A DNA stretch of 64,000 nucleotides from Salinigranum salinum (GTDB lineage: Archaea > Halobacteriota > Halobacteria > Halobacteriales > Haloferacaceae): the NCBI RefSeq assembly GCF_009176545.1, contig NZ_VTOJ01000001.1, positions 682,001 through 746,000 of the forward strand. The letters are read 5' to 3'. The position numbers and the translations under genes are program-made. Positions within the stretch are counted from its first letter, which is position 1, and each line of letters begins with the position of its first letter. Under the pieces are notes generated by a model. The model saw only the letters and a program-made list of their open reading frames with translations, had not been told where the DNA came from and did not search any database. Positions 1,813-11,249 of the stretch are shown here, piece by piece.

Positions 1813-2769
1813 TTACACCTGGTTTCTGAGTTCGATCTTAGGCCCTCTACCCTCAACAAACAACTCGTACTGACCGACGACATGATCAATATGATTCGAT
1901 TTTCTTGAAGCTGACATATTTGTTCTCTCTGTATCACCGGACTTGAAGCGGTTTCTAGTCGCTGAAGCTTTAGAAAACGTTTCCTCGGAAACAATCCGGT
2001 AGTCTGAAATCTGCTTCGAGACGCCCGCTACTCTGTATTCTCCTGTGTAAATCACATTCCGAAGTACATCACCCACTGCCCGGGCACACCATTCGTTTGA
2101 TCGTTTCGTTTGTACCCCACGTTCGTTTAGCTGCTGTGCTACCTCTGACATTGACTTACGGTCAAGATACTCGTGGAATATTTGCTTCACCAATTGAGCT
2201 TCAGGCTCGTTCACGACCAACCGCCCGTCTTCTATGTCGTATCCCAGAGGAGGCGATTTATTCGGCCATCTGCCATCCATTGCCATCGCGTACAACCCCA
2301 TGCGTGAGCGGTCGCGAATCATATCTCGCTCAAATTCCGCGGCACTTGCGATATTTCTGAAGTTGAACCGACCAGCCGATGTGGTCGTGTCTATCTGTTC
2401 AGTCACGCTGTGAAGCGCGATGTCCCACTCTCGGAGTTGCCTCTCCAACTGAACTACGTGCAGGAGGCTCCGAGAGAATCGGTCGAGCTTCCAGAACACG
2501 ACGACATCAAACAGCCTGCGCTCTCCGTAATCCATCAATATTTGGAACTGCGGTCTGTCTACGTCCTTCCCGCTCTTTGCCTCGTCTTGGAACACGTACA
2601 GCGAAAGCCACTGCTGGAACTCACATCGCTCCAAGCATCGCCGCACCTGTTCCTTCAACGAGTACCCAAACTTTGGATTACTCTTGGACGTCCTCGCATA
2701 CACTGCCGCCCGTACCGTCTCCGGTTGTTCATCGGCTTCGGGTCTATCCCAAACGGACCCCTCAAACAT
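1813..2769 (-). CDS. Serine recombinase (resolvase/invertase plus recombinase domain)
   Basis: A 318-residue serine recombinase. The resolvase catalytic domain (about residues 19-165) has VYARTS with the predicted nucleophile Ser28, and KLDRFSRS with the catalytic arginines near 97 and 100. A recombinase domain follows (about 173-250, PPLGYD to YTGEYR). The C-terminus is short: there is no long zinc-ribbon/coiled-coil region as in 450-600-residue integrases. The ATG at 2769 lies inside the end of the TFB gene (8-base overlap), so it is very likely translationally coupled to TFB and the Cas4-like gene. It would catalyse site-specific strand exchange; whether integrase, invertase or excisionase is unknown. 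Confidence 0.9.
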   Translation of the reverse strand: MFEGSVWDRPEADEQPETVRAAVYARTSKSNPKFGYSLKEQVRRCLERCEFQQWLSLYVFQDEAKSGKDVDRPQFQILMDYGERRLFDVVVFWKLDRFSRSLLHVVQLERQLREWDIALHSVTEQIDTTTSAGRFNFRNIASAAEFERDMIRDRSRMGLYAMAMDGRWPNKSPPLGYDIEDGRLVVNEPEAQLVKQIFHEYLDRKSMSEVAQQLNERGVQTKRSNEWCARAVGDVLRNVIYTGEYRVAGVSKQISDYRIVSEETFSKASATRNRFKSGDTERTNMSASRKSNHIDHVVGQYELFVEGRGPKIELRNQV

Positions 2770-3559
2770 CGATAACCCCTCCTTGCCTGAACTCTTGTAG
2801 TCGAACCCGAATGGTTTCACGTGAAACCCCCGCTGCTTCCGCGATCTCACGTTGTGTTCGCTCCCCAGATTCCACAGCGTAGATTGCCGCGCTTGCCACT
2901 CCAACCGGATTCCGCCCGGCAACTAGTCCCTCAGATCTTGCCGACTGTACGAGTTCGCGGGCGCGTTCTACTGTCGTGGGCGTACACTCGAGCGACTTAC
3001 AGAGAGGTTCGATGTAACTCTCCGGCAAGCAGTCCGCATTTTCGAGATTCAGCTCTCTCTTCAGTCGTTTGGTGAGCCTGCCGATGTCACGAGAATCTCT
3101 ATTCATCCGGTGAGCGACAAGACTGATCGGAAGCGGTTCCCCTGCCTGTCGTGTGGCTATGCAGACCAGTGCGCCAACCACGTCCTCAGTATGCCGTCCA
3201 TCATTGAGTCTATCTCGTGCCACCTGACCGTACAGTGAAGCGACCTGTAGGCGCACATCGGAGGAAAGATCGAATTGGTTCCCAATCTGTTCCAGAATCT
3301 CCAGTGCAGTTGCGACACGCTGTTCAGTGCTGTTCCTGACTTTGAACACGTCAGTCCACTCTTCACTGTCCCTCGGATTGTCCGCACTCATCGCTTGACT
3401 CTCTCTGAGTTGACTCAATGCTTCCTCCACGCCCTCCTGCCGAATTACGAACCCACACGCAGTACAAACGCCTTCGACGAAGTCGAAGTCGCTCACGACC
3501 GATTCTCCACCACATGCGGGGCACACCGATGGCCCGTCACTGGGTGAACTGCTAATCAT
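2762..3559 (-). CDS. TFB (TFIIB-like) protein lacking the usual B-reader/linker stretch
   Basis: A 265-residue TFB homologue. It has an N-terminal zinc ribbon (Cys13, 16, 32, 35; CPAC and CTAC) that in TFBs docks on RNA polymerase, and two cyclin-like repeats ending in a helix-turn-helix (REIAEAAGVSRETIRVRL) that in TFBs reads the BRE. Between ribbon and first repeat there are only about 30 poorly conserved residues. The conserved B-reader and B-linker region of housekeeping haloarchaeal TFBs is not recognisable. Its ATG overlaps the Cas4-like stop (ATGA) and its end overlaps the recombinase start. It may redirect polymerase to island promoters or act as a blocker. Confidence 0.85.
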   Translation of the reverse strand: MISSSPSDGPSVCPACGGESVVSDFDFVEGVCTACGFVIRQEGVEEALSQLRESQAMSADNPRDSEEWTDVFKVRNSTEQRVATALEILEQIGNQFDLSSDVRLQVASLYGQVARDRLNDGRHTEDVVGALVCIATRQAGEPLPISLVAHRMNRDSRDIGRLTKRLKRELNLENADCLPESYIEPLCKSLECTPTTVERARELVQSARSEGLVAGRNPVGVASAAIYAVESGERTQREIAEAAGVSRETIRVRLQEFRQGGVIDV

Positions 3560-6223: not shown

Positions 6224-7078
6224 ATGGACCTGCCTTACACCGTCGGCCAAAGGACGAAGAGGGCTAAAATTCACGAACGATTTGGAGGCAATCCTCAATC
6301 TGGAATCTCCAGCTCCGGACAGGTTGATGCAGTTTTCCTCTTCACTGACGACGAGGGCGATAATCCATATGAGGACAAATGGATTTCCGAAACTGAGTTC
6401 GAGTATTCTGGACAAGGACAACAAGATGACCAGAACTTCGACCGATCCAACCCAAATGGCCGAGCGAATGACGACCTGAAAAACCATGCTCAGTACGGTA
6501 AGGAGGTACATCTCTTCGAGAAATCAGTCGAAAATGACTCCATAGTCGTATACTTGGGCCAACTGGAATATGTTGACCATGATTTCAAACAGCGCAAGGA
6601 CGTGGACGGTAATCCTCGTCAAGAAATTCGCTTCGAACTTCAATTGGTGAAAAATGAATACACTGGTGATAGAGACGTTGTCTCGGACGAAGATACACTC
6701 AGGGAGTTAGCAAGGAACGCTTCCAGTAATGATTCGCCTTCGAGTAAACGGGGTGGAAAAAGTCACAAAACATCGAGGCTCGTTCGTGAATATGCCTTAG
6801 ACTGGGCAAACGGATACTGTCAAGGTTGTGACAATCCGGGCCCATTCAAGACTCCGAGTGGCGACCGCTATCTTGAAGTTCACCATGTTTTCCGCCGAGC
6901 TGATGGGGGTCCTGATCATCCAGACGCAGTGATTGCTCTTTGCCCCAACTGTCACAGTGAACGGCACTATGGGCGGAGAGGAGACCAATTCAATAGAAGA
7001 CTCATCGAAAGACTGCGGGAGCGAGCGATAGACCAAATTGGGGAGATTCCGCCGGTACTGAGAAAGAATCCTGAATAA
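6224..7078 (+). CDS. McrA-like SRA-HNH endonuclease, predicted modification-dependent restriction
   Basis: A 284-residue two-domain nuclease. The N-terminal half (about 5-145: GQRTKRAKIHERFGG, then HLFEKSVENDSIVVYLGQ) resembles the SRA-like domain of Streptomyces ScoMcrA, which recognises modified DNA. The C-terminus is a zinc-stabilised HNH nuclease with Cys199/Cys202, EVHH at 218-221 and CPNCH at 240-244. Family knowledge predicts cleavage of DNA carrying modified cytosine or phosphorothioate, a type IV restriction role that needs no methylase partner, and none is present. A TATA-like element at about 6196-6205 fits a leaderless start at 6224. It converges on the CARF-like gene. Confidence 0.8.
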   Translation: MDLPYTVGQRTKRAKIHERFGGNPQSGISSSGQVDAVFLFTDDEGDNPYEDKWISETEFEYSGQGQQDDQNFDRSNPNGRANDDLKNHAQYGKEVHLFEKSVENDSIVVYLGQLEYVDHDFKQRKDVDGNPRQEIRFELQLVKNEYTGDRDVVSDEDTLRELARNASSNDSPSSKRGGKSHKTSRLVREYALDWANGYCQGCDNPGPFKTPSGDRYLEVHHVFRRADGGPDHPDAVIALCPNCHSERHYGRRGDQFNRRLIERLRERAIDQIGEIPPVLRKNPE

Positions 7079-8344: not shown

Positions 8345-8965
8345 ATGACTAAAGAGGAACTCGATCGATTCATCCGCTCTCAGAAGCGGAAGACGCACAG
8401 CGTAGACGAACAAGTTCTCATCGCCCTCTCGATGTACGAGCGGGGACTTGGCCCGCTCCACGACGGGGCGAAGCGGGGTGATCTTGAAGACGAACTCCGC
8501 CTCAAGCTTGACTATAACATCGGCACGTCTCTGAGCCATCTCGAAGAAATCGGAGTGGTAGAAAGCTTCCTACCGCCAGGTCCGACCGGCTACGCGATCA
8601 GTGAACGCTTGGACGATATCGTCAACGGCAAAGTTGACGAGATAGCAGAGACCGACATCGAAAACCTGATCCGCCATATCCAGGACGACGATCCTGCCTC
8701 AGGAGGAGACGCGCCAGCAGTAGCCGACGGGTCCGGAGTTACTGTCCGCCGAGTGGTGGCCAACACATTCGATCTCACACCCGAAGGAGTCGAAGACTAC
8801 CTCCGACACGGTGACCAGGTCAAGAAGTTGAACAAAGCCATCGACGCGATCGAAGACAGCCCAGAGGCCGACAAGCGCGACGATTACGGGCGTATCGTCT
8901 TCAGAAACACAGCATACCGCTACCGCCTCACCGAGAAGGCGGTGGAACTAGTTGAGGGCGAGTAG
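8345..8965 (+). CDS. Winged-helix-like protein of unknown function
   Basis: A 206-residue acidic protein. The first 85 residues (SVDEQVLIALSMYERGLG, then LSHLEEIGVVESF and GYAISERL) read as a winged-helix domain; a charged linker with DDDPASGGDAP follows, and the C-terminal part ends in another helical segment with YRYRLTEKAVELVEGE. No catalytic motif is visible. Its TAG stop is followed immediately, with no spacer, by the ATG of the GIY-YIG gene, so the two are cotranscribed and likely coupled. It may be a regulator or DNA-binding partner of the downstream nucleases. Function is not assigned. Confidence 0.7.
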   Translation: MTKEELDRFIRSQKRKTHSVDEQVLIALSMYERGLGPLHDGAKRGDLEDELRLKLDYNIGTSLSHLEEIGVVESFLPPGPTGYAISERLDDIVNGKVDEIAETDIENLIRHIQDDDPASGGDAPAVADGSGVTVRRVVANTFDLTPEGVEDYLRHGDQVKKLNKAIDAIEDSPEADKRDDYGRIVFRNTAYRYRLTEKAVELVEGE

Positions 8966-9265
8966 ATGCCGATTCAAAAGAAGTGGAGCCACGCGACGAA
9001 GGAACACGTCGTCAGCACGGTCCCTGAGAAGGGGGGTGTCTACGAGCTCAAATCGTTCGGTGAACTGGTCTACATCGGCAAAGCTAACAGCAATCTCCGT
9101 GACCGTCTCCTGGACCACGTTGAGAAGCGTAATCCGAGCCATTTCCGGTTCAAGACGGCTGGATTCTTCGGAAGTCCGACCCGAATGGAGCGTAAGCATC
9201 TGCTTGCATACGGAGATTCGGATTCGGAGACACCGCCCTGGAATAACCGGATTCCACGACCCTAG
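8966..9265 (+). CDS. Small GIY-YIG domain protein
   Basis: A 99-residue protein consisting almost only of a GIY-YIG fold: GVYELKSFGELVYIGKA supplies the GVY and YIG strands, the following LRDRLLDH has the conserved arginine, and RMERKHL may provide the metal-binding glutamate. GIY-YIG enzymes cut one DNA strand with a metal ion. A stand-alone domain this short usually needs a targeting partner, and the zero-gap gene upstream is the natural candidate. The MCM-nuclease fusion begins 64 bases downstream with its own TATA element. The fold is well supported; activity is inferred. Confidence 0.75.
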   Translation: MPIQKKWSHATKEHVVSTVPEKGGVYELKSFGELVYIGKANSNLRDRLLDHVEKRNPSHFRFKTAGFFGSPTRMERKHLLAYGDSDSETPPWNNRIPRP

Positions 9266-9297: not shown

Positions 9298-9310
9298 GGT
9301 TATTTTACTC
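9298..9310 (+). promoter_or_regulatory. TATA-like promoter element of the MCM-nuclease gene
   Basis: GTTATTTTACTC lies about 27 bases before the ATG at 9330, the distance expected for a leaderless haloarchaeal transcript. It supports choosing this ATG rather than the TTG at 9318. Confidence 0.5.
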
Positions 9311-9329: not shown

Positions 9330-10898
9330 ATGGCTCAACCATCTCAAGATAACGAATTCACTGAGTATCTCATTCAATTCTACCGTGAGAACTACGATGA
9401 TGAAATTGATTGCCTCACCAATCGATATCCACACGAACAACGGTCTCTGTACGTAGATTACGATGACCTACACGCATTTGATTCTGACCTTGCAGAGGAT
9501 TACCTCACCAAGCCGATCCAGATGCAGCGGTATGCGGAAAAAGCCCTCCGTCTCTATGACCTACCAGCGGATGTTTCACTCGATCAGGCTCATGTGCGAC
9601 TGACCAATGTCCCAGAGGAGAGTACTATTGAGCCTGGTAATGTCCGAGTCGATGATGACCTCCTTGGTAAACTCGTAACGGTTCGTGGATACGTGGACGC
9701 AGCCTCCGATGTGGATGCAAGTGTAACTGAGGCCGCTTTCGAGTGCCAAAGGTGTGGAACTATGACTTACCTCCCACAGCACCGTACTGGCTTCCAAGAA
9801 CCACATGAGTGTCAGGGTTGCGAGAGACAGGGGCCGTTCGACATCAACTATGATAAATCCGAGTTCATTGATCGTCAAACCGCCACCCTGGTTCCACTAC
9901 CAGAGGCAGACGTAAAGGCTAATGGTGAATTACAGGTTGTTTTAGAAGACGACATTGCTGGACAGGTGGCAACCGGAGACCGAGTTTCAGTAATCGGGGT
10001 ACTGCACATTGGGCAAGAGGAATCGAAAACGATGTACAACACATATTTGGACGGAGTCTCAATTTCCAAACTGGCAGCTGAAAACACCGGCCTCTACAGC
10101 GGCCCATATCTCGACACACCCAAAGGAGAAGTTGACAGCGAAGCACTTGAGAAATTCGTGCAACGCTCGGTTGCTGTGCTTCGAACACAGACACTTAACG
10201 AGATGGAGACTCAGAGCAAGGTAATCACTCCGTTCCTCCGACTGTTGGGCTGGAGCGTTTACCACCTTGAGTTTCGTTTCGAGTATTCTGATTCAGAAGT
10301 CGGCGGTGATAAGGTAGATTACGGACTACTTGATCAGGATGAAACACCTGTATTCGTCGTAGAAGCGAAGCAGGAGGGAAAGAATCTTGATCTCCATTTC
10401 AAACAGATCAAGAAGTATATGCGCCTCTTCCAAGTCCAGCTTGGTCTGCTTACAAACGGTGAACGGTACGTATTTTTTTCAAAGGATCCAGATGCCAGCT
10501 CCGCTAGTGAGTTAGTATTGCTTGATTGTAAGCTTCAAAATCTCCCCAATCATCGAGATGTACTTGCAGCCTATACCCAAGAATCGGTGGTTGGCGGTCA
10601 TACCTCATTGGACGAACTAGTGCAATCTGCGAAAGAACGAGAGAAATCAGAGGGTCAATTCGATGCTGATGCCTTCCGTCAAACATCTCCTGAAGATAGA
10701 GACACGCTCGATGCCGCAAAATCAATCATTTCAGATATTGACGCTGATTCAGATCTCGGTGCTCCGATTGAACGAGTGTTTCGGCAGTTTGAATCCGAGC
10801 TTGATCTTGACCGGGAAGAGGCCGAAGAGCTAATACATGATCTTAGGGTGAACGGAAAAATATATGAGCCACATCAGAATCATCTTCGTACGACATAG
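9330..10898 (+). CDS. MCM-like protein with the AAA+ motor replaced by a PD-(D/E)XK nuclease
   Basis: A 522-residue chimera. Residues 9-250 match the N-terminal part of haloarchaeal MCM helicase: helical domain with RYPHEQRSLYVDYDDL, OB fold, zinc finger Cys139/142/161/164 (FECQRCGTMTYLPQ; CQGCERQGPF). Residues 440-522 match the MCM C-terminal linker and winged helix, ending NGKIYEPHQNHLRTT. The whole ATPase region, with Walker A, Walker B and arginine finger, is absent. Instead residues about 272-420 form an HsdR_N-type nuclease: ETQSKVITPFLRLLGW, Asp330 (KVDYGLL), Glu345-x-Lys347 (VVEAKQ), QIKKY and LLTNGERY. It could join or block MCM rings and cut the DNA they hold. Partner and target are inference. 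Confidence 0.88.
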   Translation: MAQPSQDNEFTEYLIQFYRENYDDEIDCLTNRYPHEQRSLYVDYDDLHAFDSDLAEDYLTKPIQMQRYAEKALRLYDLPADVSLDQAHVRLTNVPEESTIEPGNVRVDDDLLGKLVTVRGYVDAASDVDASVTEAAFECQRCGTMTYLPQHRTGFQEPHECQGCERQGPFDINYDKSEFIDRQTATLVPLPEADVKANGELQVVLEDDIAGQVATGDRVSVIGVLHIGQEESKTMYNTYLDGVSISKLAAENTGLYSGPYLDTPKGEVDSEALEKFVQRSVAVLRTQTLNEMETQSKVITPFLRLLGWSVYHLEFRFEYSDSEVGGDKVDYGLLDQDETPVFVVEAKQEGKNLDLHFKQIKKYMRLFQVQLGLLTNGERYVFFSKDPDASSASELVLLDCKLQNLPNHRDVLAAYTQESVVGGHTSLDELVQSAKEREKSEGQFDADAFRQTSPEDRDTLDAAKSIISDIDADSDLGAPIERVFRQFESELDLDREEAEELIHDLRVNGKIYEPHQNHLRTT

Positions 10899-11177
10899 AC
10901 TCAGAGCGAGGTGATCTACTCCTGTTGGCAATACATAGCCCGACACCGTTCTGGTCACCGTGGGAACCCCTTTCTTCTAGTATCTGAAGCTGAGTAGCAT
11001 AATTCCACATCAAGCACTGAAGAACGACTAAGTACTCTGCACTCGTCTCAACTCTTGCAAACCGCGTGATAGCGACGACCCGCGTCACGTAGCCTGACGG
11101 ACTCTTCAGACGGAAGGGTGTCCTGTATATAAGCAGGTCGCCGTAGTCTGTTGATTCCGAACCGTCAGAGAAGATGA

Positions 11178-11249
11178 TGGACTCGCCGGGATTTGAACCC
11201 GGGGCCTCTTCCTTGCGAAGGAAGCGATCTGCCACTGATCTACGAGCCC
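11178..11249 (-). tRNA. tRNA-Ala (anticodon CGC)
   Basis: A 72-nucleotide cloverleaf on the minus strand. The acceptor GGGCTCG pairs with CGAGTCC, including the G3:U70 pair that identifies alanine tRNAs. The anticodon stem CTTCC/GGAAG frames loop TTCGCAA, giving CGC. The T arm has GGTTCAAATCC. CCA is not encoded. Its 3' end faces the accessory island, the orientation expected if the gene serves as an integration target. It lies 184 bases downstream of rpsJ and may be part of that transcript. Confidence 0.95.

What the first reader, a model, noticed from the sequence alone, without database searches (positions are those of the whole stretch)
9330..10898. MCM helicase ends wrapped around a restriction-type nuclease in place of the motor
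The N-terminal part (residues about 9-250, zinc Cys139/142/161/164) and the C-terminal winged helix (about 440-522) follow haloarchaeal MCM almost collinearly, yet Walker A, Walker B and arginine finger are all absent. In their place residues 272-420 carry an HsdR_N-like PD-(D/E)XK core (Asp330, Glu345, Lys347). A protein that keeps the MCM ring and DNA-binding parts but swaps motor for nuclease could enter MCM hexamers, bind MCM-bound forks or recognise invading replicons. Collinearity and motifs are seen; the mechanism is inference.
Basis: partly seen in the sequence, partly recalled or inferred. Interest (0 to 1): 0.92.

Follow-up and report, generated by a model that had tools for sequence, protein, structure and literature searches.

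The report
Host-helicase fragment fused to DNA-cutting enzyme
On mobile DNA of salt-loving archaea, one lineage of DNA-cutting enzyme has joined itself, at least nine separate times, to a motor-less piece of its own host's replication helicase, which suggests that it is aimed at replication machinery, perhaps as a defence against viruses and plasmids.

Summary
ORF 9330-10898 (522 aa) is an MCM N-tier (Zn, OB) plus an HsdR_N-type PD-(D/E)XK nuclease plus an MCM winged helix, with no AAA+ motor. About 516 halobacterial genomes and two plasmid records gave nine lineages of this architecture. A tenth (G080) joins the same nuclease lineage to a dead MCM motor plus winged helix. The two halves have conflicting histories. 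All the nucleases fall on one 100/100 branch, apart from 35-70 free-standing relatives. Each MCM piece whose origin can be resolved is instead closest to the mcm of its own host: 8 of 8 N-tiers in a tree, plus G080 by similarity. One fusion clade for the N-tier is rejected (p 3e-96). The fusions keep the zinc cysteines and the hexamer-interface phenylalanine. They have repeatedly lost the ssDNA-binding lysine/arginine and the loop that talks to the motor. The loci are plasmids, islands and defence operons; the window copy ends a 26-kb element in tRNA-Ala. Best reading: a nuclease that docks on the host's MCM machinery, probably an anti-element effector. Docking, target and activity are inferred, and the nuclease fold was not modelled. 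I found no earlier description in the literature searched.

The parts
9330..10898 (+). MCM-nuclease chimera, 522 aa
   Evidence: open frame; Pfam; nine lineages of relatives
9351..9551 (+). MCM_N (A-subdomain), residues 8-74
   Evidence: Pfam PF14551 6e-8
9651..10010 (+). MCM_OB with zinc finger, residues 108-227; groups with the MCM of the own genus
   Evidence: Pfam PF17207 1.1e-19; tree support 99-100/98-99
9744..9821 (+). zinc-binding Cys139, 142, 161, 164
   Evidence: invariant in all ten N-type fusions
10137..10604 (+). HsdR_N-type PD-(D/E)XK nuclease, about residues 270-425, in the place of the AAA+ motor
   Evidence: HSDR_N_2 4e-8, HSDR_N 7e-7; D330 (10317-10319), E345 (10362-10364), K347 (10368-10370) conserved
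10722..10889 (+). MCM winged helix, residues 465-520; best match is the own host's MCM C-terminus
   Evidence: PF21120 2.7e-4; 79.7 bits to the host MCM
9301..9309 (+). possible TATA box (ttattttac) about 25 bases before the ATG, as in a leaderless gene; suggests its own promoter
   Evidence: sequence reading only, inference
11178..11249 (-). tRNA-Ala (CGC), right end of the 26-kb element; 23-nt repeat of its 3' end (11177-11199) recurs at window position -15087
8966..9265 (+). GIY-YIG / DUF7508 protein, upstream neighbour, not shared with other fusion loci
   Evidence: cross-locus comparison
6224..7078 (+). SRA-like plus HNH modification-dependent restriction enzyme (type IV), defence context

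Best explanation
It is a chimeric nuclease. One lineage of HsdR_N-type PD-(D/E)XK nuclease carries, in each host lineage, a motor-less or motor-dead piece of that host's own MCM helicase. Shown: the architecture, the conflicting histories of the two halves, the kept zinc and interface residues, the lost ssDNA-binding and motor-coupling residues, and the mobile, often defence-rich location. Inferred: the MCM piece is an assembly handle that docks on the host's MCM ring, or on what binds it (loader, double-hexamer partner), so that the nuclease sits at replication driven by the host's MCM. As cargo of plasmids, islands and defence operons it most likely cuts or blocks replication of invading elements that recruit the host MCM, or aborts replication on infection. 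How it spares the chromosome is unknown.
For: In an N-tier tree (58 rows) the fusions are scattered, each beside its own host's chromosomal MCM; one fusion clade is rejected, dlnL 292, p 3e-96. Adding the chromosomal MCM of the Haloglomus-type genome afterwards placed that fusion beside it too, 100/99: 8 of 8. The G080 winged helix is 56% identical to its own host MCM (112 bits; genus-mate 104; others at most 67). All nucleases form one 100/100 side against 35-70 free-standing relatives. In all 8 fusions the zinc cysteines and F179 (the Pfu hexamer-interface residue, PMC4627082) are kept. The ssDNA-binding pair (Pfu R124/R186, PMC3970758) is lost: K124 in 7 of 8, to D/E in 6; R186 in 6 of 8. 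The motor-coupling loop is degenerate in 8 of 8. Context: within a DUF499/MTase/PLD-helicase operon, beside GmrSD and SRAP or ApeA, type IV SRA-HNH and CARF. No neighbour is shared by all loci, which fits a lone effector that uses host factors.
Against: No experiment or complex model shows binding to MCM. The nuclease fold was not modelled with confidence. G129 lacks the catalytic lysine, and G218 keeps both ssDNA-binding residues. The Haloplanus/G240 N-tier is so divergent (22%) that a match to the host MCM cannot be shown. Defence neighbours are common on haloarchaeal islands in general, and no enrichment test against random genes was made. G080 sits beside orc1/cdc6 and parA, which also fits a plasmid function.
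Confidence: 0.5

Rival explanations
1. The host match is a by-product. The chimeric gene travels between hosts, and homologous recombination with the resident mcm gene replaces its MCM half; the match itself has no function, and the nuclease is aimed otherwise.
For: MCM genes of archaeal mobile elements are often recruited from hosts (Krupovic 2010, cited in PMC6563490). The N-tiers are 46-79% identical to the host's, which fits old exchanges.
Against: In the same tree, viral MCMs form their own clade and only one of the plasmid MCMs sits inside a host lineage, so host matching is not automatic. G080 has the nuclease on the other side of a different MCM piece, which simple conversion does not explain. 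Zinc and interface residues are kept.
Confidence: 0.2
2. It is a weapon of the mobile element: it blocks or cuts replicons driven by the host MCM (the chromosome or rival plasmids), for instance as an exclusion or addiction factor, while elements with their own MCM escape.
For: Copies lie on plasmids and in an integrated element, one next to orc1/cdc6 and parA; many elements carry their own, different MCM.
Against: No antitoxin-like partner is shared by the loci; two copies lie inside an operon of a host-protecting type.
Confidence: 0.18
3. A fork-repair nuclease that uses MCM parts to reach stalled forks.
For: One copy is followed by an SRAP gene 41 bases downstream on the same strand.
Against: Very rare (11 of about 516 genomes) and patchy, on mobile DNA; nothing like a core repair gene.
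Confidence: 0.07
4. A dominant-negative MCM subunit in which the nuclease no longer matters.
For: The MCM interface is kept, the motor is absent or dead.
Against: D330 and E345 are invariant in ten proteins of nine lineages; dN/dS 0.19 in the nuclease of a close pair.
Confidence: 0.05

Closest known systems
Haloarchaeal replicative MCM helicase
   Same: N-tier with zinc finger and OB fold; winged helix in some; closest relative is the own host's protein
   Different: no AAA+ motor (dead in G080); ssDNA-binding motif and allosteric loop lost; nuclease added
HsdR_N / HSDR_N_2 PD-(D/E)XK nucleases (type I restriction R subunit N-terminus, free-standing archaeal relatives of about 370 aa)
   Same: nuclease motif D-ExK and LGW signature
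   Different: no SF2 motor, no HsdM/HsdS beside it; forms its own branch, all of whose clear members are joined to MCM
DUF499-centred BREX-related (Hma-like) systems with auxiliary PD-(D/E)XK effectors (PMC12839542)
   Same: Haloplanus/G240 copies lie between the methyltransferase and the PLD-helicase of such an operon
   Different: an orthologous operon in G080 lacks the gene there; no such operon near the window copy; the passages read from that paper mention MCM only for BrxL
BrxL of type 1/4 BREX (MCM-family AAA+ protein in defence)
   Same: MCM-related protein in a defence setting (PMC12839542)
   Different: BrxL keeps the AAA+ motor; the fusion keeps the opposite half
MCM helicases of haloviruses and plasmids
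   Same: MCM genes on mobile elements
   Different: complete helicases that mostly form lineages of their own

Membership tests
MCM replicative helicase | N-terminal A/Zn/OB domains | tested here: met
MCM replicative helicase | AAA+ motor with Walker A/B and arginine finger | tested here: not met
   absent in the window protein; dead in G080
MCM replicative helicase | MSSB ssDNA-binding residues (Pfu R124, R186) | tested here: not met
   A124 and T186 in the window protein (PMC3970758)
Type I restriction R subunit (HsdR) | HsdR_N nuclease followed by SF2 motor, with HsdM/HsdS genes | tested here: not met
   only the nuclease is present
PD-(D/E)XK nuclease superfamily | catalytic D and (D/E)xK in an HsdR_N-like core | tested here: met
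   motifs and Pfam
PD-(D/E)XK nuclease superfamily | three-dimensional fold | tested here: inconclusive
   nuclease part modelled with low confidence
PD-(D/E)XK nuclease superfamily | nuclease activity | not testable with these tools
   needs an in vitro assay
DUF499 BREX-related (Hma-like) system | DUF499 ATPase, DUF1156 methyltransferase and helicase in one operon | tested here: not met
   met around the Haloplanus/G240 copies, absent around the window copy

The most novel reading that the evidence does not exclude
A nuclease lineage that is aimed at replication by wearing its host's own MCM: a ring-docking immune (or selfish) effector that must be re-tailored by capturing a new MCM piece whenever it enters a new host, a decoy-type recognition system built from the replicative helicase.
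Probability: 0.45. Interest if true: 0.95.

Novelty: categorically new. Interest (0 to 1): 0.86.

Why it matters
At least nine host-matched captures of a motor-less MCM piece by one nuclease lineage look like repeated natural experiments in targeting the replicative helicase. If the docking idea holds, it is a new way to mark replicons by the helicase they use. It would also make testable how archaeal cells tell their own replication from that of viruses and plasmids, and would give a tool for cutting at MCM in living cells.

Tried and rejected
Chance or misassembly: rejected, because the architecture recurs in nine lineages with conserved sites. Single old fusion passed on: rejected for the N-tier. 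Fusion nucleases as one clade without G080: rejected (p 0.013-0.021), because G080 lies inside; G080, first taken for free-standing, proved to be fused to a dead MCM motor. Two further rows inside the fusion side of the first tree (L166, L169) were short HsdR-like pieces on long branches; leaving them out did not change the picture. The GIY-YIG and 206-aa genes just upstream are not shared by other fusion loci, and relatives of the 206-aa gene occur on plasmids in whose records no full-length relative of the fusion was found, so I do not count them as parts. A collection scan by degenerate patterns found only one fusion and a viral scan with the nuclease none. The winged-helix origin is clear for G080, suggestive for the window, and unresolved for G341, G129 and Haloglomus. 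Bacterial promoter scans are not informative here.

Full report
What is there. The ORF at 9330-10898 (+) encodes 522 aa. Pfam gives MCM_N, MCM_OB, HSDR_N_2/HSDR_N and a weak MCM_WH_arc in that order, and no AAA+ domain. Solved structures agree by sequence: MCM N-tiers for residues 11-242 and, with a profile, a type I R subunit for the nuclease. AlphaFold models the MCM part well and the nuclease badly, because only two of the twelve aligned sequences covered it. The nuclease fold therefore rests on profiles and motifs.

How common. Searches of 392 genomes of the class, extended to the families of several members (handles G000-G515, about 516 genomes), and the plasmid records gave ten proteins of nine lineages with MCM N-tier plus this nuclease. 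One further genome (G492) has a hit of the Haloplanus type. The count is a lower bound, since the later searches used strict cut-offs. A draw of 393 genomes of the phylum gave no hit of fusion strength outside the class. In the ten aligned proteins the four zinc cysteines, D330, E345, E291, P301 and LGW306-308 are invariant; K347 is kept in nine. The winged helix is present in the window, G341, Haloglomus and G129 proteins only.

A tenth lineage with another architecture. The G080 protein (638 aa) looked free-standing but carries the same nuclease at its N-terminus, followed by an MCM motor whose Walker A (VHDSGTLT for GDPGTGKS) and arginine finger (SQFD for SRFD) are destroyed, and a winged helix. 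Its winged helix matches its own host MCM at 56% (112 bits), its genus-mate at 104 bits and all others at 67 bits or less.

Two halves, two histories. In a tree of 58 N-tiers each fusion sits beside the chromosomal MCM of its own host or genus: G002 100/97, G129 98/86, G218 100/92, G341 100/92, G105 99/99, G169 100/99 (together with a Haloarcula plasmid MCM), window 99/99. Holding the fusions together costs 292 log-likelihood units (p 3e-96); holding only the five closest together still gives p 2e-10. The Haloglomus fusion had no host sequence in that tree. When the MCM of the genome carrying that type of fusion (G429) was fetched and added, it became the fusion's sister at 100/99, which serves as an unplanned test. 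In that smaller tree the G105 pair has somewhat lower support (94/99). The Haloplanus/G240 N-tier is too divergent to place. The nuclease domains behave the opposite way: all ten plus G080 lie on one side of a 100/100 branch, with 35 free-standing haloarchaeal relatives on the other in a thinned tree and 70 in the full one. So one nuclease lineage has acquired its MCM piece anew, or had it replaced, in each host lineage.

What the MCM piece has kept and lost. Of 90 columns invariant in 26 chromosomal MCMs, fusions keep 73% on average. All eight keep the zinc cysteines and the phenylalanine equivalent to Pfu F179; loss of either the zinc domain or F179 makes Pfu N-tiers monomeric (PMC4627082). 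The columns lost most often include K124 (E, E, E, A, D, D, K, E) and R186 (Q, T, V, T, T, R, R, T), which correspond to the two ssDNA-binding arginines of Pfu MCM (PMC3970758; alignment). The conserved loop QESPEGLRGG that follows, identified with the allosteric communication loop of that paper, is degenerate in all eight. Since the captures are independent, these are parallel losses: the DNA grip and the motor contact go, the assembly features stay. This is evidence about the role of the piece, not proof of ring entry.

Surroundings. The window copy is the last gene before tRNA-Ala(CGC). A 23-nt repeat of the tRNA end lies 26.3 kb to the left, where GC also changes, and a tyrosine-integrase-like gene (named from its sequence, not scanned) is inside. 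In genus-mate G323 the same repeat lies 17.5 kb from its tRNA, so the site is used by another insertion there. Neighbours in the window are a type IV SRA-HNH enzyme, a CARF protein, a GIY-YIG protein, a Cas4-like nuclease, a serine recombinase and a TFB. The Haloplanus and G240 copies lie between the methyltransferase and the PLD-helicase of a DUF499 operon (HmaC 1e-90, HmaB 4e-58). The orthologous G080 operon has no gene at that place, so the nuclease is an insert there, as auxiliary nucleases of such systems often are (PMC12839542). G002 has SRAP and GmrSD, G169 has ApeA. G080 has its copy next to orc1/cdc6 and parA. No gene besides the fusion is shared by all loci.

Most likely working. The parsimonious reading is a nuclease that uses its host's MCM N-tier as a handle to join or dock on host MCM or its partners, and acts on replication that uses that MCM. 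Defence against invading replicons fits the surroundings best; use by mobile elements against host or rivals is the main alternative in function, and recombination without functional need is the main alternative for the host match. Viral MCMs in the same tree mostly stand apart from host lineages, which speaks against host matching being automatic for MCM genes on mobile elements.

Limits. Function, docking and activity are untested. Defence-gene enrichment was judged by eye. The number of independent captures rests on trees with long fusion branches, although host pairing in 8 of 8 is not what long-branch attraction would give. The literature search covered open papers only; the fusion was not found there.

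Noticed in passing
window -15087 to 11199: 26-kb low-GC integrated element in tRNA-Ala(CGC) with 23-nt direct repeats and a tyrosine-integrase-like gene; genus-mate G323 has the same repeat 17.5 kb from its tRNA-Ala
   Followed up: partly
window 1813-3559 and L137:9159-10874: Serine recombinase and TFB module shared (55% and 33%) between the window element and the G218 locus, both of which carry MCM-nuclease fusions
   Followed up: partly
L137:12-992, L167:7320-8273, L168:7683-8444, L045:6031-6432: Short proteins with an MCM N-tier and no motor or nuclease (one with a winged-helix-like tail), a further set of motor-less MCM derivatives
   Followed up: no
L194:15025 to L202:6140 and L044:2806-15297: DUF499-DUF7680-DUF1156-PLD helicase operon, 55-65% identical between G080 and Haloplanus, with a short conserved leading gene (70-75 aa)
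   Followed up: partly
L086:8563-11829 and L194:1004-4435: Large (about 1100 aa) DUF5817-containing proteins of unknown function near two fusion loci, 23% identical
   Followed up: no
window 8345-8965: 206-aa protein (one relative is annotated as winged helix-turn-helix) with relatives on at least eight haloarchaeal plasmids
   Followed up: partly
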